Of a stretch of 64,000 nucleotides of DNA, positions 50,397 through 64,000 are shown in pieces (position 1 is the stretch's first letter; the number at the start of each line of letters is the position of its first letter). The stretch comes from Thiothrix fructosivorans (GTDB lineage Bacteria > Pseudomonadota > Gammaproteobacteria > Thiotrichales > Thiotrichaceae). Position numbers and translations under genes: made by a program. Below the pieces are notes generated by a model, which was given only the letters and a program-made list of their open reading frames with translations, ran no database searches and was not told the DNA's origin. Location of the stretch: the NCBI RefSeq assembly GCF_017349355.1, contig NZ_JAFMPM010000008.1, positions 682,001-746,000 on the forward strand. The letters run 5' to 3'.

Positions 50397-51134
50397 ATGA
50401 TACGTATGTCGAGCTGGTTTATTGCCGATTTGCATTTAGATGCGTCCCGCGCCGGTGTGATGCGCCAATTATTGGCGTTGCTGGGGCAGATTGAGGGTAG
50501 GGCGGATGCACTCTACATGCTGGGTGATTTCTTTGAATATTGGGTCGGTGATGATGCTCTGGCTACGCCTCATGCGGCGATTTTTCAGCCGGTAGTAGCA
50601 GCTTTGCGGCAAGTGAGTGACAGTGGCGTGAAGCTGTATTTCCAACACGGCAATCGCGACTTTTTGGTGGGGGAGCGTTTTGCAGAGGTGACGGGCTGTA
50701 CCTTGTTGCCAGAGCAGCACCTCATCGACTTGTATGGCACGCCGACCTTGTTATTGCACGGTGATACGCTGTGTACCGATGATGTCGAATACCAGCAAGT
50801 GCGCAAGCTGTTCCGCAACCCGCAATGGCAGCAGCAATTCCTTGCCTTACCGCTGGCGGAACGTATTCGTCAAGCCGAAGTGATGCGAGCGCAAAGCCGC
50901 CAGAGTATGCAGGGCAAGGCGGAGGCGATTTTGGATGTGAATCAGCAGACAGTAGAAGCGACCTTGCGAGCAACGGGTGTAACGTGCATGATTCACGGGC
51001 ATACGCATCGCCCTGCTGTGCATGATTTCTTGCTGGATGACTTGCGATCACAGCGGGTAGTATTGGGCGATTGGCACGAAGCCAAAGGGAGTTTTTTGCG
51101 TGTGGATGCTGACACTATGACGTTGGAATGTTAA
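50397..51134 (+). CDS. lpxH: UDP-2,3-diacylglucosamine diphosphatase
   Basis: LpxH hydrolyses UDP-2,3-diacylglucosamine to lipid X, the fourth step of lipid A synthesis, at the membrane surface. The 245-aa calcineurin-like phosphoesterase shows WFIADLHLD, MLGDFFEYWVGDD, FQHGNRDFLVG, LLHGDTLCTDD and MIHGHTHRPAVH, all metal-ligand motifs. ATG 50397 is close after AGGA; ATG 50406 (MSSWFIADLHL) matches family N-termini better and may be the true start. It overlaps the following kinase gene. Confidence 0.96.
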   Translation: MIRMSSWFIADLHLDASRAGVMRQLLALLGQIEGRADALYMLGDFFEYWVGDDALATPHAAIFQPVVAALRQVSDSGVKLYFQHGNRDFLVGERFAEVTGCTLLPEQHLIDLYGTPTLLLHGDTLCTDDVEYQQVRKLFRNPQWQQQFLALPLAERIRQAEVMRAQSRQSMQGKAEAILDVNQQTVEATLRATGVTCMIHGHTHRPAVHDFLLDDLRSQRVVLGDWHEAKGSFLRVDADTMTLEC

Positions 51135-53821
51135 TGATACGTCGCCTCATCTGGTTAGGGTTGCTGTGCTGTCTCTTTGGAAAGCTGGCAATTGCCGCGC
51201 AGCCGCCTCTGGAATCGCTTACCGTGCAATTGAAGTGGCAACCGCAGTTCCAGTTTGCGGGGTATTACGCTGCGTTGGAATACGGCTTTTTCCGTGAGGA
51301 AGGGCTGGATGTCAGCTTATTGCCCGGTGGCTCTGACATAGCGCCACTAATTGAGGTGTTGGAGGGGCGGGCGGACTACGCGATTGAGGCGGGGGAATTG
51401 GTGTACTACCGTTTGCAAGGCAAGCCAGTGGTGGCATTGGCGAGCATTTTCCAACATTCGCCCGCAATGTTAATGACTGAGGGCACGGCGGGTTTGCGCA
51501 CGCCGCACGATTTAGCTCATAAACGCATTGGAATGCAGGTCGGCGGGCAGCCGATTGTAGAAATCGCTGCGATGTTTGTGAACGAAGGGGTGGCGCTGGA
51601 TGCCTTGGCGTTGCAGCCGAATCGACCGGGAATGGAGGCATTGCTGTCTGGGCAGGTGGATGCGGAATACGGTTACATGACCAGTGAGCCCTTTTTCAAT
51701 ACGCAGGCGGGGCACGACATTCATTACATTCAGCCGATCACTTACGGGGTGGATTTTTACGGCGATACCTTGTTTACTAGCGAGCGGCATTTGCAGGAAC
51801 ACCCAGCGCAAGTGGCGGCGTTACGCCGTGCGGTGGTGAGAGGCTGGCAATACGCGCTGGAAAACCCCGATGACATGATCAGCGTCTTGCTGAAACGTTA
51901 CCCGCAGTTGAACCGTGAGGCCTTGCAGTTTGAAGCGGTGCGTATTCATGATTTAGTGAAACCGGATATTGTCAAAATCGGTCACATGAATTCGGAACGC
52001 TGGCGGCGCATGGCGGATACGTTCATCAAGCTGGGCATGGTTAACGATACCAGCCAGTTGGATGGCTTTTTGTACGACCCCGATCAAAAGCCGGATTATC
52101 GCTGGTTGTGGTGGATACTCGGCGGGTTTGGGGTGGTTGCGCTATTGGGATTTATTGGCAGTGGTGTGGTAGCGTGGGTCAACGGGCGTTTGCAGGAAAA
52201 GAACACCTTATTGCAACAATCGGTCGCTGCCCAGCAAGCGAGTGAGCGTTTGTTGCAGGACAGCCAGCGTTCCTTGCAAAACCTGATTGGGCATCTACCG
52301 GGGATGGCTTACCGTTGCCATAACGATGCTGATTGGACGATGGAGTTTGTCAGTGAAGGCTGCGAAGCCCTGACGGGTTATCCACCCGAGTGGTTGATTG
52401 CATCGCAGCGGTTGACGTGGACGCGTTTGATTCATCCCGATGATCGTGCGGAGGTGACGGCAACGGTGGTTAAGGCCAGTGCTGCGCGGCATCTGTTCCA
52501 GTTGAGTTACCGGATACAACACCGTTCGGGGGAATGGCGTTGGGTGTGGGAACAGGGGCACTGCGTGGCTTACGATGCGGCGGGCGAGCCGCTGATATTG
52601 GAAGGCTTGATTATGGATATTACCGCACAGGTCGATGTTCAGCAGAAATTGCAGCAAGCCAAGGAACAAGCCGATGCGGCGACCCGCGCCAAATCCATTT
52701 TCCTTGCCAATATCAGCCATGAAATCCGCACGCCGTTGAATGCCGTCACGGGTTTGGCGCAATTGCTGCAACAGGAAAGTTTGCAGGGTAAGCAGCGTGA
52801 ATACGCCCAACAATTGCACAGTTCTTCCAAGTTGTTGCTGGGGATTGTCGAAGATGTGATGGATTTTTCCTGTATCGAAGCGGGGGAGGTGGTGTTGCGC
52901 CTTGTGCCGTTCAATATGCAGGGAATTCTGCAAGGCATTCGACATATTGTGCAAGATACCATCGCGGACAAGGGCTTGGCGTTCACGATGGATGTGCAAG
53001 ATGACATTCCCGCTGTGTTGATCGGCGACCCGTTGCGTCTGAGCCAAGTGTTGAATAATTTGCTGATTAATGCGGTTAAATTTACCAATAAGGGCGGCGT
53101 TTCCCTGCATGTGGGCTTGCAAGCGCATATGGCGGCTAAGGTTAGGTTGCAATTCAGTGTGCGTGATACGGGTATCGGAATTCCGGCAAATCAGCGCGAG
53201 AGCTTGTTTGAACCCTTCGTGCGGATTGATGCGGGTGAGTATGAGGCGGTGAAAGGCGCGGGTTTGGGCTTATCCATCAGCCGCCATTTGGTGGAATTGA
53301 TGGGCGGCGCGATTAGTGTGGAAAGTATTCCCGGTGTGGGCAGTGAGTTTACGTTCTGTGCGGACTTTGGGTGTGATGCGCCGTCTACGCTGTTGCCTGA
53401 CGCGGCGGTGTTATCCACGACGGCAGCGAATGCGCTATTGGTAGGGGCGCAGATTCTGGTGGTGGACGATGATGTATTGAACCTGATGATCAGCATTGAG
53501 TTGTTACATATCCTCGGCTGTATCACATCCAGTGCGGAGAATGCTGCCCAAGCAATGGTGGCACTTGAAACAGGTACGTTTGACCTCGTATTCATGGATG
53601 TTGAAATGCCGGGGATCAAAGGGGATGCCTTAACCACACAACTGCGTGCTGACCCGCGTTGGCGAGCTTTGCCGATTATTGCCATGACCGCGCACGCCCA
53701 TGCCGACATCCGTAGCCAGTGTTTGGCAAGCGGGATGAGTGATTACCTTGCAAAACCGTTTGATATGGTGCAATTGCGGGCGGTGTTGGTGCGGTGGTTG
53801 GCGGGGCGCACCTTGGCTTAA
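51134..53821 (+). CDS. Hybrid sensor histidine kinase with periplasmic THI5/NMT1-like binding domain
   Basis: This 895-aa inner-membrane sensor has a signal/anchor segment (residues 5-22), then an SsuA/THI5-like solute-binding domain (about 28-310, VQLKWQPQFQFAGYYAALEYGFFREEGLDV). A transmembrane helix lies near 325-348. Next come a PAS domain (about 385-490) with its PAC strand, and HisKA with the phospho-acceptor in FLANISHEIRTPLNAVTGL. HATPase_c has NNLLINAVKFTN, DTGIGIP and GAGLGLSISR, and a receiver domain follows (ILVVDDDVLN, FMDVEMPG, YLAKPF). The ligand is unknown, though THI5-like domains bind pyrimidine or aromatic sulfonate compounds. No output regulator is adjacent, and the 3' end overlaps convergent phoR by four bases. 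Confidence 0.94.
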   Translation: MIRRLIWLGLLCCLFGKLAIAAQPPLESLTVQLKWQPQFQFAGYYAALEYGFFREEGLDVSLLPGGSDIAPLIEVLEGRADYAIEAGELVYYRLQGKPVVALASIFQHSPAMLMTEGTAGLRTPHDLAHKRIGMQVGGQPIVEIAAMFVNEGVALDALALQPNRPGMEALLSGQVDAEYGYMTSEPFFNTQAGHDIHYIQPITYGVDFYGDTLFTSERHLQEHPAQVAALRRAVVRGWQYALENPDDMISVLLKRYPQLNREALQFEAVRIHDLVKPDIVKIGHMNSERWRRMADTFIKLGMVNDTSQLDGFLYDPDQKPDYRWLWWILGGFGVVALLGFIGSGVVAWVNGRLQEKNTLLQQSVAAQQASERLLQDSQRSLQNLIGHLPGMAYRCHNDADWTMEFVSEGCEALTGYPPEWLIASQRLTWTRLIHPDDRAEVTATVVKASAARHLFQLSYRIQHRSGEWRWVWEQGHCVAYDAAGEPLILEGLIMDITAQVDVQQKLQQAKEQADAATRAKSIFLANISHEIRTPLNAVTGLAQLLQQESLQGKQREYAQQLHSSSKLLLGIVEDVMDFSCIEAGEVVLRLVPFNMQGILQGIRHIVQDTIADKGLAFTMDVQDDIPAVLIGDPLRLSQVLNNLLINAVKFTNKGGVSLHVGLQAHMAAKVRLQFSVRDTGIGIPANQRESLFEPFVRIDAGEYEAVKGAGLGLSISRHLVELMGGAISVESIPGVGSEFTFCADFGCDAPSTLLPDAAVLSTTAANALLVGAQILVVDDDVLNLMISIELLHILGCITSSAENAAQAMVALETGTFDLVFMDVEMPGIKGDALTTQLRADPRWRALPIIAMTAHAHADIRSQCLASGMSDYLAKPFDMVQLRAVLVRWLAGRTLA

Positions 53822-55113
53822 TCCAGCACCCGCTTTGCTGGGAAGCAAGCGCGAAACACTGTGCGTCCGGGCTTGCTTTCAATCGTCAATTTGCCGTTAT
53901 GCCACTGCATAACGTGTTTAACAATCGCTAAACCCAAGCCTGTGCCGCCACTAGCGCGTGAACGTCCTTCGTCCACCCGATAAAAGCGTTCAGTCAAATG
54001 CGGCAAGTGCTTTTCAGGAATGCCAGGGCCATTGTCTTCTATGCTTAAACAGGCTTGTCCATCCGCTTCGCTTTGCCACAGGATGCGAATGCGCGTTCCC
54101 GTCGGGGTATGTTTGACCGCATTGGCGAGCAAGTTCGTGATGATGCTGTGGATGTCCTTTTCCGAACCACACACACATAAATCGGATTCGATTTGTGCTT
54201 CTAACGTGTGCGTATTCGCTGCCAACGTGTCGCGGATTGCTTGAATACCACTCTCCAACAGTGCGGGTACATCCACTTGATTGCCCATTAAGGGTGTCGT
54301 TTCCTGACTTTCCAGCCGTGACAGTGCCAGCATATCACTGATGATTTGCTGCATTCGGGCGGCTTGTTCGCGGGATTGTTGCAACGGTGCTTGGAAATAA
54401 TCCGGTAATTCCGGGTCTTGCTCAAACAGCTCGATATAACCCGTCAACACCGTCAAGGGGGTGCGCAATTCATGGGAAGCGTTAGCGATAAAGGCTTTGC
54501 GGGTTTTTTGCAATTGCACACCTTCACTAATGTCACGCACGCTCAATACCCGTGAGCCACCTTGCAAGGGTAACAAACGCCCACGCAACGTCAGATTGCT
54601 ATGACGCGGTGAAGGAAACGTGACTTTACGCTCGCTGTTTTCTTCTAACAATTTGTGTAAGTCAGGATTACGTAGCAGCGTATCAATGCGCTTGCCTCGG
54701 TCAACTTCATCGCGAATACCCAGCAGTTTTGCGGCTGATTTATTCGCCCACTGAATATGATTGTCAATATCCAGCAAAATGGCTGCATCGGGTAAGACGG
54801 AGAGCACATTGTCGAAGCGATTGAGTAATTCTTTTTGTTTTTGTTTGCGCTCAGCACTTTTTTGTTGGGATTTGTGGAACAAGTAGGCAATTTGTTCCCA
54901 TGCACCATCACTGTCAGGCATTTCCTCTGGTTTTTGTCCATTGGTAAGCCAGCGTTGCAATTCGTAGAGTTTGTGTAACATCCAAGCAATGTAACCCAGC
55001 AATACCAGCACCATGATGGGGAATGGGTAGGGAGTCAACCACGCCAATAGAAACCCGCCACCGACGACAATTGCAAGACGGTAGCGTTCGATACTCCAAT
55101 AATCATTCGACAT
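53818..55113 (-). CDS. phoR: Phosphate regulon sensor kinase PhoR
   Basis: PhoR phosphorylates PhoB when phosphate is scarce and is held inactive by PhoU and the Pst transporter. The ATG at 55113 overlaps the phoB stop (TGATG); a TTG one codon earlier is possible. Of 431 aa, residues 10-45 form two membrane helices with a negligible periplasmic loop, as in PhoR. A PAS domain (about 100-195, LLNRFDNVLSVLPDAAILLD) is followed by HisKA (FIANASHELRTPLTVLTGYIE) and HATPase (LLANAVKHTPTGTRI, DNGPGIPEKH, GGTGLGLAIVKHVM). It is the last gene of the pst-pho operon. Confidence 0.96.
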   Translation of the reverse strand: MSNDYWSIERYRLAIVVGGGFLLAWLTPYPFPIMVLVLLGYIAWMLHKLYELQRWLTNGQKPEEMPDSDGAWEQIAYLFHKSQQKSAERKQKQKELLNRFDNVLSVLPDAAILLDIDNHIQWANKSAAKLLGIRDEVDRGKRIDTLLRNPDLHKLLEENSERKVTFPSPRHSNLTLRGRLLPLQGGSRVLSVRDISEGVQLQKTRKAFIANASHELRTPLTVLTGYIELFEQDPELPDYFQAPLQQSREQAARMQQIISDMLALSRLESQETTPLMGNQVDVPALLESGIQAIRDTLAANTHTLEAQIESDLCVCGSEKDIHSIITNLLANAVKHTPTGTRIRILWQSEADGQACLSIEDNGPGIPEKHLPHLTERFYRVDEGRSRASGGTGLGLAIVKHVMQWHNGKLTIESKPGRTVFRACFPAKRVLD

Positions 55114-55811
55114 CAATCACCTGTTGATTCGCCACTAAACAAATAACCTGCGCCGCGAATCGTTTGGATGACGTTATCGGCAGCATGGGTTTTCAACGTT
55201 TTGCGCAAGCGTAGCACATGCACATCAACAGTGCGTTCTTCGATATAGGTGTTTTGACCCCAAACAAAGTCGAGTAATTGAGCACGGGAATAGACCTTTT
55301 CTGGGTGCTGCATGAAAAATTCCAGCAAGCGGTATTCGGTCGTACCCAAATGCACGGGTGTGCCATCAATGCGTAACTGGTGCGCATCCTGATTAAGTTG
55401 CAGGCGTCCCGCGTTGATTACGCGTTGTTCATCGAAACCTTCCGAACGGCGCAACAAGGCTTTGATTCGCGCACTCAGGGCTTTGAGTGACACGGGTTTG
55501 ATGAGGTAATCGTCTGCACCTGCGTCCAGCCCGTGGATCATGTCATCCTCTTCGCTTTTGGCGGTGAGCATGATAATCGGAATATCGCGGGTCAGTGGGT
55601 CACGGCGGAAGCGGCGGATGAGTTCGGGGCCGGACAAGTCCGGCAGCATCCAATCGACCAACATCAAGTCAGGTAACTGGTCTGCTGCCAGATCACGCGC
55701 AACTCGCGCATCCGCCGCTTCTTGCACCGCATAGCCTTCGCGTTCCAAGGAAAAGCGGATCATGGCACGGATCGCCGCTTCATCCTCAATGCATAGAATG
55801 CGTTTTTTCAT
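55113..55811 (-). CDS. phoB: Phosphate regulon response regulator PhoB
   Basis: PhoB binds Pho boxes when phosphorylated and activates phosphate-starvation genes. The 232-aa protein has a receiver domain (RILCIEDEAAIRAMIRFSLE, phospho-acceptor Asp in LMLVDWMLPDLSGPE, Lys in YLIKPVSL). The OmpR-type winged helix runs from about 130 to 228 (LGTTEYRLLEFFMQHPEKVYSR and TVDVHVLRLRKTL). It lies nine bases after phoU. Candidate target sites are the three Pho boxes near 60180, 61037 and 63200 in this window. Confidence 0.97.
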   Translation of the reverse strand: MKKRILCIEDEAAIRAMIRFSLEREGYAVQEAADARVARDLAADQLPDLMLVDWMLPDLSGPELIRRFRRDPLTRDIPIIMLTAKSEEDDMIHGLDAGADDYLIKPVSLKALSARIKALLRRSEGFDEQRVINAGRLQLNQDAHQLRIDGTPVHLGTTEYRLLEFFMQHPEKVYSRAQLLDFVWGQNTYIEERTVDVHVLRLRKTLKTHAADNVIQTIRGAGYLFSGESTGD

Positions 55812-55820
55812 GCAGGTGAC

Positions 55821-56531
55821 TTAATCATTACCCAGAATTTCGTCGCGCATTTTTTCCAGATTGGTGTGGCGCACGTCCTTGCCTTTCACCAAATAGATGA
55901 CGTATTCGCAGATGTTTTTGCAATGGTCGCCGATGCGTTCCATTGAGCGGGCGCACCACGTCACGTTCAAGCTGTCCTTGATATTGCGTGGGTCTTCCAG
56001 CATCCGCGTGTAGAGTTGGCGAGTAATGGAATCGAATTCCTCATCCACTTGCTGATCATTGCTAACGACCTGCATGGCTTGCTTTACATCCAAACGTGCC
56101 AGCGCATCTAACGTATCACTGAGCATGGCTTTGACGTGTTCACCCAAGTGGCGCAATGAGTTGTGTAAATCGCCGTAACTGGCTGTTTCGGTCATTTCCA
56201 CCGCGTAACGTCCGACTTTTTCCGCTTCGTCGCCAATGCGCTCAAGGTCGGTAATGACCTTGATAATGGTCAGCAGCAAGCGCAAATCGCTGGCAGCCGG
56301 TTGGCGACGGGCGATAATTTCCGCACATTGCTCATCAATCGCCACTTCCATCGTATTGATTTCGTAGTCGGAGAACGAGACTTTTTCACCCAAGGCACTA
56401 TCACGTTCCAGCAAGGCTTTAATGGCATCCGTGACTTGAGTTTCCACTAAGCCGCCCATCGTCATCAGTTTGCTACGAGCCGCTTCCAGTTCCTGATTGT
56501 ATTGGTGCGAAGTATGTTGCGTATTATTCAT
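55821..56531 (-). CDS. phoU: Phosphate signalling protein PhoU
   Basis: PhoU links the Pst transporter to PhoR, switching signalling off when phosphate is ample. The start at 56531 overlaps the pstB stop (ATGA) and gives 236 aa; a longer frame reading back into pstB is spurious. It consists of two three-helix bundles, each with a metal-binding repeat: [21 protein letters not shown] in the first and [22 protein letters not shown] in the second. Confidence 0.96.
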
Positions 56532-57412
56532 CCGAAGCGTCCTGTAATGTAGTTTTCCGTTAATTGGTGCTGGGGATTGGTGAAGACCGTTTTGGTGTTG
56601 TTCACTTCCACCAGTTTGCCCATGTGGAAGTAAGCAGTCCGTTGCGAAATCCGCGCAGCCTGTTGCATCGAGTGGGTAACGATACAAATAGTAAAGCTCT
56701 GGCGCAATTCGTCAATCAATTCTTCGATAGTCGCGGTGGCAATTGGGTCAAGCGCAGAGGTCGGTTCATCCATCAGGATCACTTCCGGGCTGACCGCGAT
56801 GGTGCGGGCAATGCACAGGCGTTGTTGCTGACCACCTGATAAACCTGTCCCCGGTGTTTGCAAGCGATCTTTAACTTCTTTAAACAAACCTGCTTTAGTC
56901 AAGCTGCTTTCTACGATCTCATCTAACTCGGCGCGGTTAGCTGCCAGTCCGTGCAGGCGCGGGCCATACGCCACGTTGTCGTAGATGGATTTCGGGAAGG
57001 GGTTGGGCTTTTGGAACACCATGCCGACCCGTGCACGCAACAGTACCGGATCTTGCTCTTTACCGTGAATATCTTCACCGTCCAGTCTAATGTCACCCGT
57101 GACGCGGCAGCCTGCAATGGTGTCGTTCATGCGGTTCAGACAACGCAAAAAGGTGGATTTACCGCAACCAGATGGGCCGATCATGGCAATCACTTCATTG
57201 CGCCCGATGTCCACATTCACGTCGAAAATCGCTTGCTTATTGCCGGTATAAAACACATTCACGCCCCGGCTGAAGAACTTAGTGTCTTTGCCATCAAGGA
57301 AAGGTTTACCAACTGTGCCGGTAATGTCATGCGCAAATTCTTCACGACCGCCAGCAGCAGGCTTATGGGTTTGGGGCGCGGCAGCCGCCATGTTCAAGGT
57401 TGCTTCTGTCAT
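56528..57412 (-). CDS. pstB: Phosphate ABC transporter ATP-binding protein
   Basis: PstB is the ATPase of the high-affinity phosphate importer. Of 294 aa, the first 35 or so form an Ala/Pro-rich extension absent from E. coli PstB. The core has Walker [22 protein letters not shown], the signature [16 protein letters not shown], Walker [14 protein letters not shown] and the H-loop [13 protein letters not shown]. It lies between pstA (six bases upstream) and phoU (overlap), transcribed from the Pho-box promoter before pstC. Confidence 0.97.
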
Positions 57413-60155: not shown

Positions 60156-60189
60156 ATTGTAGGCGTTGAATATGACAGTAATGTTACAA
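60156..60189 (-). promoter_or_regulatory. Pho box and -10 of the pst-pho operon
   Basis: Read on the minus strand: TTGTAAC, ATTA, CTGTCAT (60189-60172). Ten bases later comes TACAAT (60161-60156) as the -10. The second half-site matches the PhoB consensus fully; the first matches at four of seven positions. The 10-nt spacing to the -10 is the same as in the classic E. coli phoA promoter, where PhoB replaces the -35. Confidence 0.75.
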
Positions 60190-60203
60190 GGTGTCACATT
60201 ACG

Positions 60204-60983
60204 TTAAGCAGCCCGTAACAAACCCACATCGTTGACGGGGCGGCGTTGCAAGCTGCCTTGCACAAAATGACGATGGTAACGGGTATTGAGGTTATTAACG
60301 TCCAACAGAATGAAAATATCCGCTACGTTGAAATCAGGGTCGAGGCACGGTTCACCCGCCACCCATGCACCGAGTTTCAGATAGGCTTTGAGAAGCGGCG
60401 GCATCGTAACTTTGGCGGCAGGTTGTGCAGGCAGCAAGTGCATCAATGGTTTGACGCGCAATTCAGCAGGTGCGAGGTTGTGGGTACGCGCTTCCCGCAT
60501 AATGGCAGAGGCTTGTGCGCCGCCGTCGCTCATGCTGATGCTGGCGCACCCGAACATGAAATCGACGCGGTGCATTTCCATGAATTGCGCCAAACCTAAC
60601 CACAACATGCCGATGCCTGCGCCATTGCGGAAGTCGGGGTGGATGCAGGTACGCCCGATTTCTATCGCATTGCCCTTCAATTGCGGAAATAAGCCGCGCA
60701 GGTCGAATTCGTTTTCGGAGTAGAAACTGCCTGCACGGCGTGCATTCGGCGTGGTGAGGATGCGCGTTGAACCGATCACCGCATTCGTGTCGGTGCGGCG
60801 TACCAGCAGGTGGTGGCAGTAGTCATCGTAATGGTCGCGGTCGATACCTTCACGAGCGCTTTCTAGGTGAGCACCTTGTTCTTTGGCGAAGATGTCGTAA
60901 CGCAACAGTTGAGAGGCGTGAACATCTTGCGGTGTTGTGGCAAGTTCTACGCGCAGTTGGGGTAAGTGAATAGCGGCGGTCAT
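60204..60983 (-). CDS. olsB: L-ornithine N(alpha)-acyltransferase (OlsB-type)
   Basis: OlsB transfers a 3-hydroxyacyl group from ACP to ornithine, giving lyso-ornithine lipid, a phosphate-free membrane lipid precursor. The ATG at 60983 follows AAAGGAG and gives 259 aa; an ATG 18 bp upstream is less well placed. The GNAT-like core shows VHASQLLRYDIFAKEQGA, YCHHLLVRRTDTNAVIGSTRIL, EIGRTCIHPDFRNGAGIGMLW and FMFGCASI. A Pho box precedes it, and the pst operon follows in the same direction. OlsA was not found here. Confidence 0.88.
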   Translation of the reverse strand: MTAAIHLPQLRVELATTPQDVHASQLLRYDIFAKEQGAHLESAREGIDRDHYDDYCHHLLVRRTDTNAVIGSTRILTTPNARRAGSFYSENEFDLRGLFPQLKGNAIEIGRTCIHPDFRNGAGIGMLWLGLAQFMEMHRVDFMFGCASISMSDGGAQASAIMREARTHNLAPAELRVKPLMHLLPAQPAAKVTMPPLLKAYLKLGAWVAGEPCLDPDFNVADIFILLDVNNLNTRYHRHFVQGSLQRRPVNDVGLLRAA

Positions 60984-61012
60984 GGGTTGCACTCCTTTCA
61001 TAATATCGCGCC

Positions 61013-61046
61013 AGCTTATGAAAGGTCTGTGACAGATGAATGACGG
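61013..61046 (-). promoter_or_regulatory. Pho box and -10 of olsB
   Basis: Read on the minus strand: CCGTCAT, TCAT, CTGTCAC (61046-61029), a near-consensus PhoB site. Ten bases later comes TAAGCT (61018-61013) as a weak -10. The site could also influence the divergent gene starting at 61155. Confidence 0.8.
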
Positions 61047-61154
61047 TTATTTTGCAGTACCATGAAATGCCTAGCCCGCTTGCGCAGCAAAACCGTAAGC
61101 CTTAAGCTACTTTACGTGACATGATAAAAATAATCACTGATTGCGAGGTCATTA

Positions 61155-61685
61155 ATGCCTAACAGCAAGTCGAATGCTGCGTTGGAACTGCACGCTTTAG
61201 GGAACGCTTACGCGGTATTTCGTGGGCAGCGCTTGCACCTATCCCAACGCCAGTTGGAAATTTTATGCATTCTCGCGCTACACCCTGAAGGTCTGTCGTT
61301 GGCAGATTTACATCATGCCTTGTGCCGTAATGTGGCGACGACTCGACCCACGACGATTAGAACGATGCTGACGGCATTACGTCATCTGCTGGATGGGCAA
61401 ATCGGTTCACACCCTTATCGTTTACTCATACCTGTCTGGACAGATTTCAGGGCGTTATCCGATAGGCTGGAGCAGCACGATATTGCGGCGGCGCTCGCGC
61501 TCTACCGTGGGGCGTTGTTGCCGTTATCCATGGCTCCGGCATTAGTGGAATACCGTTATTACCTTGATGCTGGTATGGATGATTTATTGCGTACCTGCAC
61601 CTCGGCGCAATTGCTGATCGACAATGCTGACAACCTCTTGTGTACCCCGCTGGTGCGCGAACGTTTATTGGCATTACTGGCTTAA
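61155..61685 (+). CDS. SARP/BTAD-like winged-helix regulator, paralogue 1
   Basis: This 176-aa protein resembles the DNA-binding and BTAD-like C-terminal module of SARP or GAF-linked regulators, standing alone. The pattern LELHALGNAYAVFRGQRLHLSQRQLEILCILALHPEGLSL (residues about 10-50) is the winged-helix entry with the recognition region, then RTMLTALRHLLDG and PYRLLIPVWTDF. ALALYRGALLPLSMAPALVEYR follows as the start of the helical module. No sensory domain is present. It is divergent from olsB and has a paralogue at 62718. Targets are unknown. Confidence 0.75.
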   Translation: MPNSKSNAALELHALGNAYAVFRGQRLHLSQRQLEILCILALHPEGLSLADLHHALCRNVATTRPTTIRTMLTALRHLLDGQIGSHPYRLLIPVWTDFRALSDRLEQHDIAAALALYRGALLPLSMAPALVEYRYYLDAGMDDLLRTCTSAQLLIDNADNLLCTPLVRERLLALLA

Positions 61686-61694
61686 AGGTTAATA

Positions 61695-61730
61695 AAAGGT
61701 TGGTAATAAAAACCAGTATTGCCAACCTTT
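61695..61730. terminator. Inverted repeat after the first regulator gene
   Basis: AAAGGTTGGTAAT (61695-61707) pairs with ATTGCCAACCTTT (61718-61730) over 13 bp with one G-T pair and a 10-base loop. It begins ten bases after the stop. No T-run follows, so it may be a Rho-dependent or processing hairpin, or an operator. A second nested hairpin (TGTAGTG...CACTACA, 61747-61789) lies in the leader of the next gene. Confidence 0.45.
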
Positions 61731-61805
61731 CATCAACCTATCTTGCTGTAGTGTTAGCACCATAGAGAGCCGCTAACAATCCCACTACAACAAAGGATCT
61801 GTGTC

Positions 61806-62537
61806 ATGAAAACGCATCCAAGCATTCAAATCAGTATTGCTCTATTAGCATTGGCAATCACTTCTCCCAGCGTTGCTGGTGTCCAATTTCGTATCAGCCA
61901 TGATGCCAGTAGCAAAGAATACGTAGTCTACATGACCCCAGACACCGTACCTTCACCGGATATGGTGTTGTCCTCACAAGTGACGCTGAGAGTGCCGCAC
62001 GGTATTGATAAGACCCGTTTTAATATTGATACATTGACCAGTGCGGTAACAGGCATCCATTGGGTTAACCATTCACGCGTGGATGCTCCTGTGGAAAGCC
62101 CTGATGCCGATTACCTGTCTTTCGGCTTACTGTATAGCGGTGGCAAACCCCCGCCCTTCGATTGGCAAGCCGGTAAAGAAAAGCGGATTTTTTCGTTCAA
62201 AAGCGCTGTGGGGTGTGTGGCGGGGGTTACCTTGATTGATAACCATGACCCTTTCAGTCAATTGCCCAATTCTGCCAATACGAATCCGGGGAATGAGTTT
62301 TCCAATATCGGTTGGTTAGGCGGGAATAGTTATACCGGTAATTACGGCAAGCCCATAACGTGCGGCAATGTGCCAACGCCATCGTCCATTTGTGAAAAAA
62401 ACCCTCTGCTGTTAAGTGCTATTAAGCGCGAAGTATCGGTTCTAGCGGCATTGATCAATAAAATTGGCTCTATCAGCCAACGGCAGACCCTTCAGAAAAA
62501 GTTGAACGACTTGCGTAGTAGCTTGCAATGCAACTAA
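61806..62537 (+). CDS. Secreted protein of unknown function
   Basis: This 243-aa protein has a clear signal peptide (residues 1-25, ISIALLALAITSPSVAG). The mature part starts VQFRISHDASSKEYVVYMTPD and is beta-rich up to about residue 190 (SQVTLRVPHG, FSFKSAVGCVAGVTLIDNHDPF, NIGWLGGNSYTGNYGKP). Four cysteines of the mature protein could form disulfides. The last 50 residues form a helix (SAIKREVSVLAALINKIGSISQRQTLQKK). I do not recognise the family. It lies between two paralogous SARP-like regulators. Periplasmic, outer-membrane or extracellular location cannot be decided. Confidence 0.8.
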   Translation: MKTHPSIQISIALLALAITSPSVAGVQFRISHDASSKEYVVYMTPDTVPSPDMVLSSQVTLRVPHGIDKTRFNIDTLTSAVTGIHWVNHSRVDAPVESPDADYLSFGLLYSGGKPPPFDWQAGKEKRIFSFKSAVGCVAGVTLIDNHDPFSQLPNSANTNPGNEFSNIGWLGGNSYTGNYGKPITCGNVPTPSSICEKNPLLLSAIKREVSVLAALINKIGSISQRQTLQKKLNDLRSSLQCN

Positions 62538-62562
62538 AGCTCTTAACGCACCGCAACCGACC

Positions 62563-62599
62563 CCTATTCACCCTATGGTTGACCCCTAGGGTGAATAGG
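62563..62599. repeat. Perfect 13-bp inverted repeat
   Basis: CCTATTCACCCTA (62563-62575) and TAGGGTGAATAGG (62587-62599) are perfectly complementary across an 11-base loop, 26 bp after the secreted-protein gene. No T-run follows. It may be a terminator-like hairpin or a binding site for a dimeric regulator of the gene at 62718. Confidence 0.8.
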
Positions 62600-62621
62600 C
62601 TTATTAAGCTGTCATACAGTA

Positions 62622-62650
62622 TTGACACCTTGTGGCTGGATAATTAGTAT
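62622..62650 (+). promoter_or_regulatory. Sigma-70-type promoter of the second SARP-like gene
   Basis: A consensus -35 TTGACA (62622-62627), 17-bp spacer and TAGTAT (62645-62650) lie 68 bp before the ATG at 62718. A CTGTCAT half Pho box (62609-62615) sits just upstream, but its 11-bp-spaced partner is poor. Confidence 0.5.
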
Positions 62651-62717
62651 CTTTCTCATTGATAAAACTCAATCATCAATAAAAAAAAACGAGTTGTCAC
62701 CTGTGAGGAATACAAGA

Positions 62718-63176
62718 ATGCCTGTCATGTCTCCACCCTTTGGATGGCGGCAACGCTGTCCGCAAAGTGAATTAGAAGTCCACGCACTTGGGTCGCCGTA
62801 CATATTTTTTCGGGATAAACCACTCCACCTCAGCCCGCGTATGCTGGAAATTCTGTGTGTTCTCGCACTCAACCCCGAAGGGCTGACTTTAGAAGCCTGT
62901 CACGCGATTCTCTACGGTGATGAGCATGTCGCTACCGCTACTTTGAAAGCTGAACTTTCCCACTTGCGCACCCTGTTGGATGGACGTATCAGTGCGCGAA
63001 CTTACCGTTTGGTGGGGACGGTTTGGGTCGATTTTATCGCCTTGTGGGCAGCCATTCGCCAACATCAAGTGGCTGAAGCCCGTCACTTATACCGAGGAGA
63101 ACTTTTACCTCATTCTCAATCCCTCGAAATCAAGGAATGGCGTGCCTGCATCAATGCCGTGATGGCGAGGCAATAA
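62718..63176 (+). CDS. SARP/BTAD-like winged-helix regulator, paralogue 2
   Basis: The ATG at 62718, after GAGGAA, gives 152 aa; an upstream start at 62622 would translate the promoter region and is rejected. It aligns along its length with the regulator at 61155 (SELEVHALGSPYIFFRDKPLHLSPRMLEILCVLALNPEGLTL, then LSHLRTLLDGRIS, TYRLVGTVWVDF and ARHLYRGELLPHSQSLEIKEWR). It is shorter at the C-terminus. It has no sensor domain, so it may respond through expression level or a partner. Confidence 0.75.
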   Translation: MPVMSPPFGWRQRCPQSELEVHALGSPYIFFRDKPLHLSPRMLEILCVLALNPEGLTLEACHAILYGDEHVATATLKAELSHLRTLLDGRISARTYRLVGTVWVDFIALWAAIRQHQVAEARHLYRGELLPHSQSLEIKEWRACINAVMARQ

Positions 63177-63192
63177 TAAAACCATCATACAA

Positions 63193-63226
63193 GCGTCACG
63201 TTGCCGTCATTCCCAAGCCTTAGCCT
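63193..63226 (+). promoter_or_regulatory. Pho box and -10 of btaA
   Basis: GCGTCAC, GTTG, CCGTCAT (63193-63210) is followed after exactly ten bases by TAGCCT (63221-63226) as a weak -10, the same geometry as the pstC and olsB sites. The second half-site matches the PhoB consensus at six of seven positions. Confidence 0.65.
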
Positions 63227-63261: not shown

Positions 63262-64000
63262 ATGGCAGGTATTTCCGACGCAATGCGCGATGCTGTGCAT
63301 CAACATGCCCCAACATCCTTGATGGGAATGCAGCAACGTTTATTCAGCTTTTGGTTCAATAGCTTCATCTACAACCAGATTTGGGAAGACCCAGCGGTGG
63401 ATTTGCAAGCCTTGCAACTGACAGCGGAAAGCCGCGTACTGACGATTGCCTCCGGTGGTTGCAATGTATTGAATTACCTTACTGCGCATCCGGCACATAT
63501 CACCGCTCTTGACCTGAACCCTTACCACTTGTCCTTGACGCGCCTGAAACTGGCGGCGATGAAACATTTGCCGGATCATGCCAGTTTTTACGATTTTGTT
63601 GGCTATGCCGACCGTGATAATAATGTAGCGCTTTATAACCGCTATATCCAGCCGCATCTGGAGGAAGAACTGGAGCGCTTCTGGCAGGGGCGTAACATCC
63701 TCGGTCAGAAGCGCATCCATATGTTTCGCGATGGACTGTATCGCCACACCCGCTTCGGCTATTTCATGCGCTTTTTGCATTGGATAGCGCGTCGAACGAA
63801 CTATCAGCCCGAAAAACTACTGACGGCTGCCAGCCTATACGAACAGCAAGCGATTTTTCGCCAACACATCGCCCCATTTTTCGACAATAAACTGGTGAAG
63901 TTGTTGGGTAAATTACCGATGTCGGTGTTTAGCCTCGGCATTCCACCGCAGCAATACAAAGCGATGCAAGCGCAGGGCAACCTGATTGCGCAGTACCGCG
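63262..64000 (+). CDS. btaA: BtaA-type S-adenosylmethionine:diacylglycerol 3-amino-3-carboxypropyl transferase, 3' end outside window
   Basis: BtaA transfers the aminocarboxypropyl group of SAM to diacylglycerol, the first step to betaine lipid (DGTS), a phosphate-free substitute for phosphatidylcholine. About 246 codons of a DUF3419 protein are visible. They include QRLFSFWFNSFIYNQIWEDPAVDLQAL, the SAM-binding VLTIASGGCNVLNYLTAHPAHITALDLNP, and FRDGLYRHTRFGYFMRFLHW. The ATG at 63262 follows GTGAGAG. A Pho box lies 52 bp upstream. BtaB, which would methylate the product, is not in the window. Confidence 0.9.
   Translation, partial: MAGISDAMRDAVHQHAPTSLMGMQQRLFSFWFNSFIYNQIWEDPAVDLQALQLTAESRVLTIASGGCNVLNYLTAHPAHITALDLNPYHLSLTRLKLAAMKHLPDHASFYDFVGYADRDNNVALYNRYIQPHLEEELERFWQGRNILGQKRIHMFRDGLYRHTRFGYFMRFLHWIARRTNYQPEKLLTAASLYEQQAIFRQHIAPFFDNKLVKLLGKLPMSVFSLGIPPQQYKAMQAQGNLIAQYR

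What the first reader, a model, noticed from the sequence alone, without database searches (positions are those of the whole stretch)
60156..63226. Three Pho boxes of identical geometry place ornithine-lipid and betaine-lipid genes with pst-phoBR
pstC (60172-60189), olsB (61029-61046) and btaA (63193-63210) each have a 7-4-7 PhoB site followed after exactly ten bases by a -10-like hexamer. Having both OlsB and BtaA routes to phosphate-free lipids beside the phosphate uptake and sensing genes points to an integrated membrane-remodelling response to phosphate limitation.
Basis: partly seen in the sequence, partly recalled or inferred. Interest (0 to 1): 0.65.

Follow-up and report, generated by a model that had tools for sequence, protein, structure and literature searches.

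The report
Phosphate-starvation lipid-swap island in Thiothrix
A sulfur-oxidising bacterium of the genus Thiothrix keeps its phosphate-uptake, phosphate-sensing and phosphorus-free membrane-lipid genes side by side under the same type of control switch, a compact version of a phosphate-saving response already known from soil and marine bacteria.

Summary
The three Pho boxes lie at the stated coordinates, each followed after 10 nt by a -10-like hexamer. The hexamer is strong at pstC (TACAAT) and weak at olsB and btaA (3/6). Across the genus the boxes and the 10-nt gap are conserved; start sites inside operons lack them. The geometry is the standard PhoB one.

Just beyond the window lie btaB, a PlcP-like phospholipase C gene, pstS, an olsA homologue, phoX, a glycolipid-type glycosyltransferase, ppk1 and a second pstS. 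Nine promoters share the geometry. All 16 genomes of the genus (Thiothrix) have olsB, btaA and olsA homologues. The regulon logic matches Sinorhizobium meliloti (PMC3972451), so this is a new member of a known kind.

Two additions. Every genome has two PhoB paralogues; the second, without an adjacent PhoR, resembles E. coli PhoB more than the one in the window. Lipid-gene boxes tend to CGTCA, most others to TGTCA. Untested: Pi induction, PhoB binding, and the head group made by 'OlsB'.

The parts
53818..55116 (-). phoR (sensor kinase)
   Evidence: TIGR02966 phoR_proteo 351 bits, cut-off 334
55113..55811 (-). phoB1 (response regulator, pst-linked)
   Evidence: TIGR02154 PhoB 312 bits, cut-off 296; second PhoB equivalog at C8:757428-758111 outside the window
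55821..56531 (-). phoU (start chosen by homology)
   Evidence: ORF; orthologues in conserved order in relatives
56528..57412 (-). pstB
   Evidence: TIGR00972 387 bits
57419..58702 (-). pstA
   Evidence: TIGR00974 232 bits
58715..60103 (-). pstC
   Evidence: TIGR02138 294 bits
60172..60189 (-). Pho box of pstC, TTGTAAC-atta-CTGTCAT
   Evidence: conserved in 13/13 genomes examined
60156..60161 (-). -10 hexamer TACAAT, 10 nt after the box
   Evidence: TACAAT kept in 12 of 13 promoters, TACTAT in the other
60204..60983 (-). olsB (N-acyltransferase, PF13444); ATG at 60983 rather than 61001
   Evidence: NCBIfam OlsB models 165 and 151 bits, below cut-offs 350 and 320; PF13444 108 bits
61029..61046 (-). 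Pho box of olsB, CCGTCAT-tcat-CTGTCAC
   Evidence: third repeat CTTTCAT at 61018-61024
61013..61018 (-). -10-like TAAGCT, 10 nt after the box
   Evidence: kept in olsB promoters of the genus where flanking bases diverge (TAAGAT in G056); GATATT further down, 10 nt after the third repeat, is an alternative
63193..63210 (+). Pho box of btaA, GCGTCAC-gttg-CCGTCAT
   Evidence: further repeat CCATCAT at 63182-63188; boxes upstream of btaA in 20/20 genomes
63221..63226 (+). -10-like TAGCCT, 10 nt after the box
   Evidence: TARCCT or TAATCT kept at the same gap in the genus except G050 (TAAATT)
63262..64000 (+). btaA, 5' part (the gene ends 476 bases past the window, at C8:746476; followed by btaB and a plcP-like gene)
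   Evidence: PF11899 339 bits
61155..63176 (+). Insert of three ORFs of unknown function (two HTH-like paralogues around a secreted-looking ORF) separating the olsB and btaA promoters in this species; not part of the regulon
   Evidence: not found at the loci of relatives, where olsB and btaA are divergent and about 200 bp apart in G052, G054, G057, G059 and G061; no Pfam match

Best explanation
This is the left half of a Pi-starvation island of about 29 kb in Thiothrix. When Pi is scarce, PhoR (sensing through PstSCAB-PhoU) phosphorylates PhoB. PhoB~P binds tandem 11-bp repeats that stand in for a -35 element, exactly 10 nt upstream of the -10, and recruits RNA polymerase. That switches on three things together: uptake and scavenging (pstCAB-phoU-phoBR, pstS, pstS2, phoX); removal of phospholipid (plcP in the btaAB operon, giving diacylglycerol and a phospho-alcohol); and replacement lipids (BtaA/BtaB make the betaine lipid DGTS from that diacylglycerol; the OlsB/OlsA homologues make an aminolipid, most likely ornithine lipid). 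Shown here: boxes, geometry, conservation, gene order, families. Inferred: Pi induction, PhoB binding, PlcP activity, lipid products.
For: Boxes and 10-nt gap confirmed and conserved across the genus and, for btaA, beyond. Operon-internal starts are negative. Nine promoters share the geometry. In genomes where olsB and btaA lie apart (e.g. G053, G055, G056) each keeps its own box. Synteny phoRB-phoU-pstBAC-olsB / btaA-btaB-plcP / pstS is conserved. olsB and btaA co-occur in 18 of the 20 genomes that have btaA; OlsA homologues in all of these. The btaAB-linked phosphoesterase is not LpxH: 49 bits against cut-off 134, while the genome's own LpxH at 50397-51134 scores 292; it is 54% identical to a gene just before btaAB in an alphaproteobacterial MAG, the arrangement reported for PlcP (PMC4796936). 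The PhoB DNA-binding domain matches solved E. coli PhoB. PhoB control of OL and DGTS synthesis and plcP is established in S. meliloti (PMC3972451).
Against: No transcript, binding or lipid data. The olsB and btaA -10 hexamers are weak (3/6). OlsB and OlsA score below the curated NCBIfam cut-offs, and related N-acyltransferases make glutamine or glycine lipids (PMC11631085). The olsA gene itself has no Pho box here. In Leucothrix-type G028 and G029 a good Pho box was found for btaA but not for olsB. The whole-genome pattern count is not enriched.
Confidence: 0.86

Rival explanations
1. The OlsB homologue makes an aminolipid other than ornithine lipid (for example a glutamine lipid), so 'ornithine-lipid gene' is wrong although the Pi response is right.
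For: OlsB homologues make glutamine and glycine lipids in other bacteria (PMC11631085); NCBIfam OlsB models match below cut-off; no solved relative found.
Against: The best models are OlsB of Rhodobacter and Brucella; it is the only strong PF13444 protein in the genome; an OlsA homologue sits in the same island and is next to olsB in G056; glutamine-lipid enzymes are mainly in roseobacters (PMC11631085).
Confidence: 0.2
2. The promoters are driven mainly by the second PhoB (C8:757428-758111, no adjacent PhoR), not by the PhoB in the window; the lipid genes may form a PhoB2 sub-regulon or a late, lower-affinity tier.
For: Two PhoB equivalogs in all 16 genomes of the genus. PhoB2 matches the E. 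coli PhoB DNA-binding domain better (143 against 108 bits) and has its own conserved Pho box. PhoB2 is present in all 18 genomes with a full olsB and in G018 (olsB fragment), and sits beside olsB or btaA in G050, G057, G058 and G018. Lipid boxes favour C at position 2 (btaA 30/30, GT4 26/28, olsB 15/30); pstC 1/24, phoB2 0/30, pyk 0/18.
Against: The recognition helices are nearly identical (RTVDVHVLRLRKTL and RTVDVHILRLRKTL), so different DNA specificity is unlikely. btaA keeps boxes in G040 and G045, which have one PhoB. pstS boxes are mixed (13/22 C). Few independent promoters.
Confidence: 0.22
3. The box-like sequences are chance or belong to another OmpR-type regulator.
For: The bare pattern is common genome-wide and not above its reversed control; several other OmpR-type regulators are present.
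Against: Conservation, fixed 10-nt gap, negative operon-internal starts and shared motif with pstS, pstC and phoB2.
Confidence: 0.04

Closest known systems
PhoB-controlled membrane lipid remodelling of Sinorhizobium meliloti / Agrobacterium (plcP, btaAB, olsB) (PMC3972451)
   Same: Same gene families, same regulator family, Pho box reported for olsB (Agrobacterium), same logic of swapping phospholipids for DGTS and ornithine lipids.
   Different: Here the genes sit together with pst-phoU-phoBR in one island of a sulfur-oxidising gammaproteobacterium; two PhoB paralogues; a glycosyltransferase, phoX and ppk1 in the same island.
Type 1 plcP-btaA-btaB clusters with Pho boxes, e.g. Phaeobacter sp. 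MED193 (PMC4796936)
   Same: plcP next to btaA and btaB, Pho boxes predicted in plcP gene clusters, diacylglycerol from PlcP feeding DGTS synthesis.
   Different: Gene order btaA-btaB-plcP here; linked to olsB and the pst operon.
E. coli PhoB-activated promoters (pho box; PMC10294691)
   Same: Direct-repeat pho boxes at a fixed spacing from the core promoter; strict spacing reported as required.
   Different: Additional degenerate repeats in some Thiothrix promoters, and CGTCA cores on the lipid genes.

Membership tests
PhoB-activated promoter (pho box) | 7-bp direct repeats with 4-bp spacer (11-bp register) | tested here: met
PhoB-activated promoter (pho box) | Fixed spacing to the -10 element | tested here: met
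   A gap of 10 nt is the best gap in five promoters across species and in nine promoters of this genome
PhoB-activated promoter (pho box) | Occupied by PhoB~P and induced in low Pi | not testable with these tools
   Needs ChIP, EMSA or RNA-seq
BtaA/BtaB betaine-lipid synthesis | BtaA (DUF3419) with adjacent BtaB methyltransferase | tested here: met
   PF11899 339 bits; methyltransferase ORF directly downstream and kept with btaA in relatives
BtaA/BtaB betaine-lipid synthesis | DGTS is produced | not testable with these tools
   Needs lipidomics
OlsBA ornithine-lipid synthesis | OlsB-family N-acyltransferase passing a curated OlsB cut-off | tested here: inconclusive
   OlsB models are the best hits at 165 and 151 bits but below the narrow cut-offs 350 and 320
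OlsBA ornithine-lipid synthesis | OlsA O-acyltransferase present | tested here: inconclusive
   Homologue at L002:14199-14951, OlsA models best (138 bits, cut-off 300), present in all genomes with olsB but also in some without
OlsBA ornithine-lipid synthesis | Ornithine as head group | not testable with these tools
   Glutamine and glycine variants exist (PMC11631085)
PlcP phospholipase C | Metallophosphoesterase distinct from LpxH, linked to phosphorus-free lipid genes | tested here: met
   no characterised PlcP sequence was at hand for direct comparison
PlcP phospholipase C | Cleaves phospholipids to diacylglycerol | not testable with these tools
   Needs enzyme assay

The most novel reading that the evidence does not exclude
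Thiothrix runs a two-tier phosphate response with two PhoB proteins: the pst-linked PhoB-PhoR pair, and a second PhoB that has lost its adjacent PhoR, controls its own gene and is tied to the lipid-remodelling branch. The CGTCA-type boxes of the lipid genes mark a separate, lower-affinity or PhoB2-preferred tier, so that uptake is induced first and the membrane is rebuilt only in deeper starvation.
Probability: 0.2. Interest if true: 0.55.

Novelty: new member of a known kind. Interest (0 to 1): 0.38.

Why it matters
Thiothrix is discussed as a phosphorus-removing organism in activated sludge (PMC11355018); the searches run here found no paper joining it to ornithine lipids, and that review does not mention lipids. 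If right, these bacteria can shed membrane phosphorus and rebuild with at least two phosphorus-free lipids under the switch that controls Pi uptake. That bears on their phosphorus budget, and on the use of DGTS and ornithine lipids as environmental markers, since a sulfur-oxidising gammaproteobacterium would be a source. The compact island and the duplicated PhoB also make a neat natural test of graded Pho responses.

Tried and rejected
The whole-genome pho-box pattern with 2 mismatches is uninformative: 1,608 hits against 2,005 for the reversed control, and its listing was truncated. PDB searches with OlsB and BtaA gave nothing; PlcP gave only weak LpxH matches. The reading that the btaAB-linked phosphoesterase is LpxH was rejected because a true LpxH lies at 50397-51134. 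Chance origin of the boxes was rejected. The order-level search returned the same 63 genomes as the family search. A literature search for a second PhoB gave no paper with all its terms.
Full report
Check of the observation. The hexamers differ in quality: TACAAT at pstC is good, TAAGCT (olsB) and TAGCCT (btaA) match TATAAT at 3 of 6. olsB and btaA each have a further repeat in 11-base register. For olsB the further repeat offers an alternative -10 (GATATT), but TAAGCT is the hexamer kept when the third repeat is lost (G053, G054, G056 as TAAGAT, G057, G058).

More than chance. A bare pattern search of the genome is not enriched over its reversed control, so the boxes need other support. It comes from four sides. 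(i) In 84 kb of contiguous sequence all seven sites scoring >=12.2 lie in five promoters, pstC, olsB, btaA, pstS and the pyruvate-kinase gene. (ii) Across relatives the boxes upstream of these genes beat dinucleotide shuffles in 88-100% of cases, while starts inside operons do so in 0-8%. (iii) The match to TATAAT peaks at a gap of 10 at each of five promoters across species, and at nine promoters of this genome it averages 3.67 against 1.58 at 19 control sites, p = 1.4e-4. Of the nine, phoX and the glycosyltransferase are the weakest cases; the hexamer of the latter is not conserved as a good -10. (iv) Where olsB and btaA lie apart in the genome (e.g. G053, G055, G056) each still carries its own box. 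Species within the genus are related, so these counts are not independent; the sites in other genera (G028, G029, G040, G045) add some independence for btaA.

What is there. The window holds phoR, phoB, phoU, pstB, pstA, pstC and olsB on the minus strand, and btaA on the plus strand. Past the window end come btaB and a metallophosphoesterase gene, apparently in one operon with btaA, then pstS on the opposite strand and a pyruvate-kinase-like gene diverging from it with its own conserved Pho box. Further on come an OlsA homologue, phoX (PF05787, 430 bits), a second phoB, a family-4 glycosyltransferase whose best models are lipid glucosaminyl- and glucosyltransferases, a PAP2 phosphatase, a GNAT gene, ppk1 and a second pstS with its own box. 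The phosphoesterase is most likely PlcP. It matches LpxH models far below cut-off while a true LpxH lies at 50397-51134, it is the only close copy in the genome, and 54% and 52-53% identical genes lie beside btaAB in two distant MAGs.

Distribution. BtaA is in 20 of 63 family genomes: all 16 of the genus, two of genus g5 and two of g8. Named matches identify the group as Thiothrix, Leucothrix and relatives. OlsB is intact in the 16 and the two of g5, a fragment in G018, and a decayed fragment in G045. OlsA homologues accompany all of them but are also found in genomes without olsB, so OlsA presence alone is weak evidence. The order phoRB-phoU-pstBAC-olsB, diverging from btaA-btaB-plcP, facing pstS, recurs across the genus. 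In five relatives (G052, G054, G057, G059, G061) olsB and btaA are divergent neighbours about 200 bases apart; in the genome studied a 2-kb block of three unknown ORFs lies between them.

Two PhoB proteins. Each of the 16 genomes has exactly two matches at the threshold used: PhoB1 beside pst and PhoR in most of them, and PhoB2 with no PhoR-type kinase next to it in Thiothrix. In G028-G030 PhoB2 is followed by a PhoR-like gene, the usual phoBR arrangement, so Thiothrix PhoB2 most likely lost its partner. PhoB2 resembles the solved E. coli PhoB DNA-binding domain more closely (143 against 108 bits) and has a conserved Pho box with a TTAAAT-type -10 at 10 nt. The recognition helices of the two are nearly identical, so both could bind the same boxes. 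The lipid-gene boxes favour C at position 2 of the repeat (btaA 30/30, glycosyltransferase 26/28, olsB 15/30), whereas pstC, phoB2 and pyk have T (71 of 72); pstS is mixed. In E. coli, box affinity sets the order of induction (Gao and Stock 2015, as cited in PMC6194859), so a graded response is conceivable, but seven promoters are too few to claim it.

Mechanism. Low Pi is sensed through PstSCAB-PhoU and PhoR; PhoB~P binds the tandem repeats in place of a -35 element and recruits RNA polymerase at a fixed spacing (established for E. coli, PMC10294691). Uptake, scavenging, phospholipid breakdown and synthesis of DGTS and an aminolipid are then induced together. The DNA side is shown here by sequence and conservation; induction, binding, enzyme activities and lipid products are inferred from the families and from S. 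meliloti and Phaeobacter (PMC3972451, PMC4796936).

Known or new. In S. meliloti PhoB activates OL and DGTS synthesis and plcP, and plcP-btaAB clusters with Pho boxes are described in marine bacteria. This is a new member of that kind in Thiothrix, unusual for its single-island layout and duplicated PhoB. I therefore score it moderate. The main caution for the title is that 'ornithine lipid' is the likeliest but not the only possible product of this OlsB homologue (PMC11631085).

Noticed in passing
L189:3428-4114 (C8:757428-758111); window 55113-55811: Two PhoB paralogues conserved in all 16 genomes of the genus; the second lacks an adjacent PhoR in Thiothrix but has one in G028-G030, and carries its own Pho box with a TTAAAT-type -10.
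   Followed up: partly
Promoters of btaA, GT4, olsB versus pstC, phoB2, pyk across the genus: Position 2 of the Pho repeat is nearly always C in btaA and GT4 and T in pstC, phoB2 and pyk; olsB is half and half, pstS mixed.
   Followed up: partly
L002:9287-11113 (C8:749287-751113): Pyruvate-kinase-like gene (NF011314, 728 bits) divergent from pstS with a conserved Pho box and TAGCAT at 10 nt: a glycolytic enzyme apparently in the Pho regulon.
   Followed up: partly
window 61155-63176: Block of two paralogous HTH-like ORFs around a secreted-looking ORF, no Pfam match, wedged between the divergent Pho promoters in this species only among those examined; a relative of the HTH-like ORFs is part of a 399-aa frame at C6:493889-494308.
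   Followed up: partly
L075 (G045:C42:60024-60296): Decayed olsB fragment with two in-frame stops about 80 bases from the single phoB of a genome that keeps btaA, suggesting loss of the aminolipid branch.
   Followed up: no
L189:4151-5907: Family-4 glycosyltransferase plus PAP2 phosphatase behind phoB2, conserved in the genus with a Pho-like box: a possible third, glycolipid, route to phosphorus-free lipids.
   Followed up: partly
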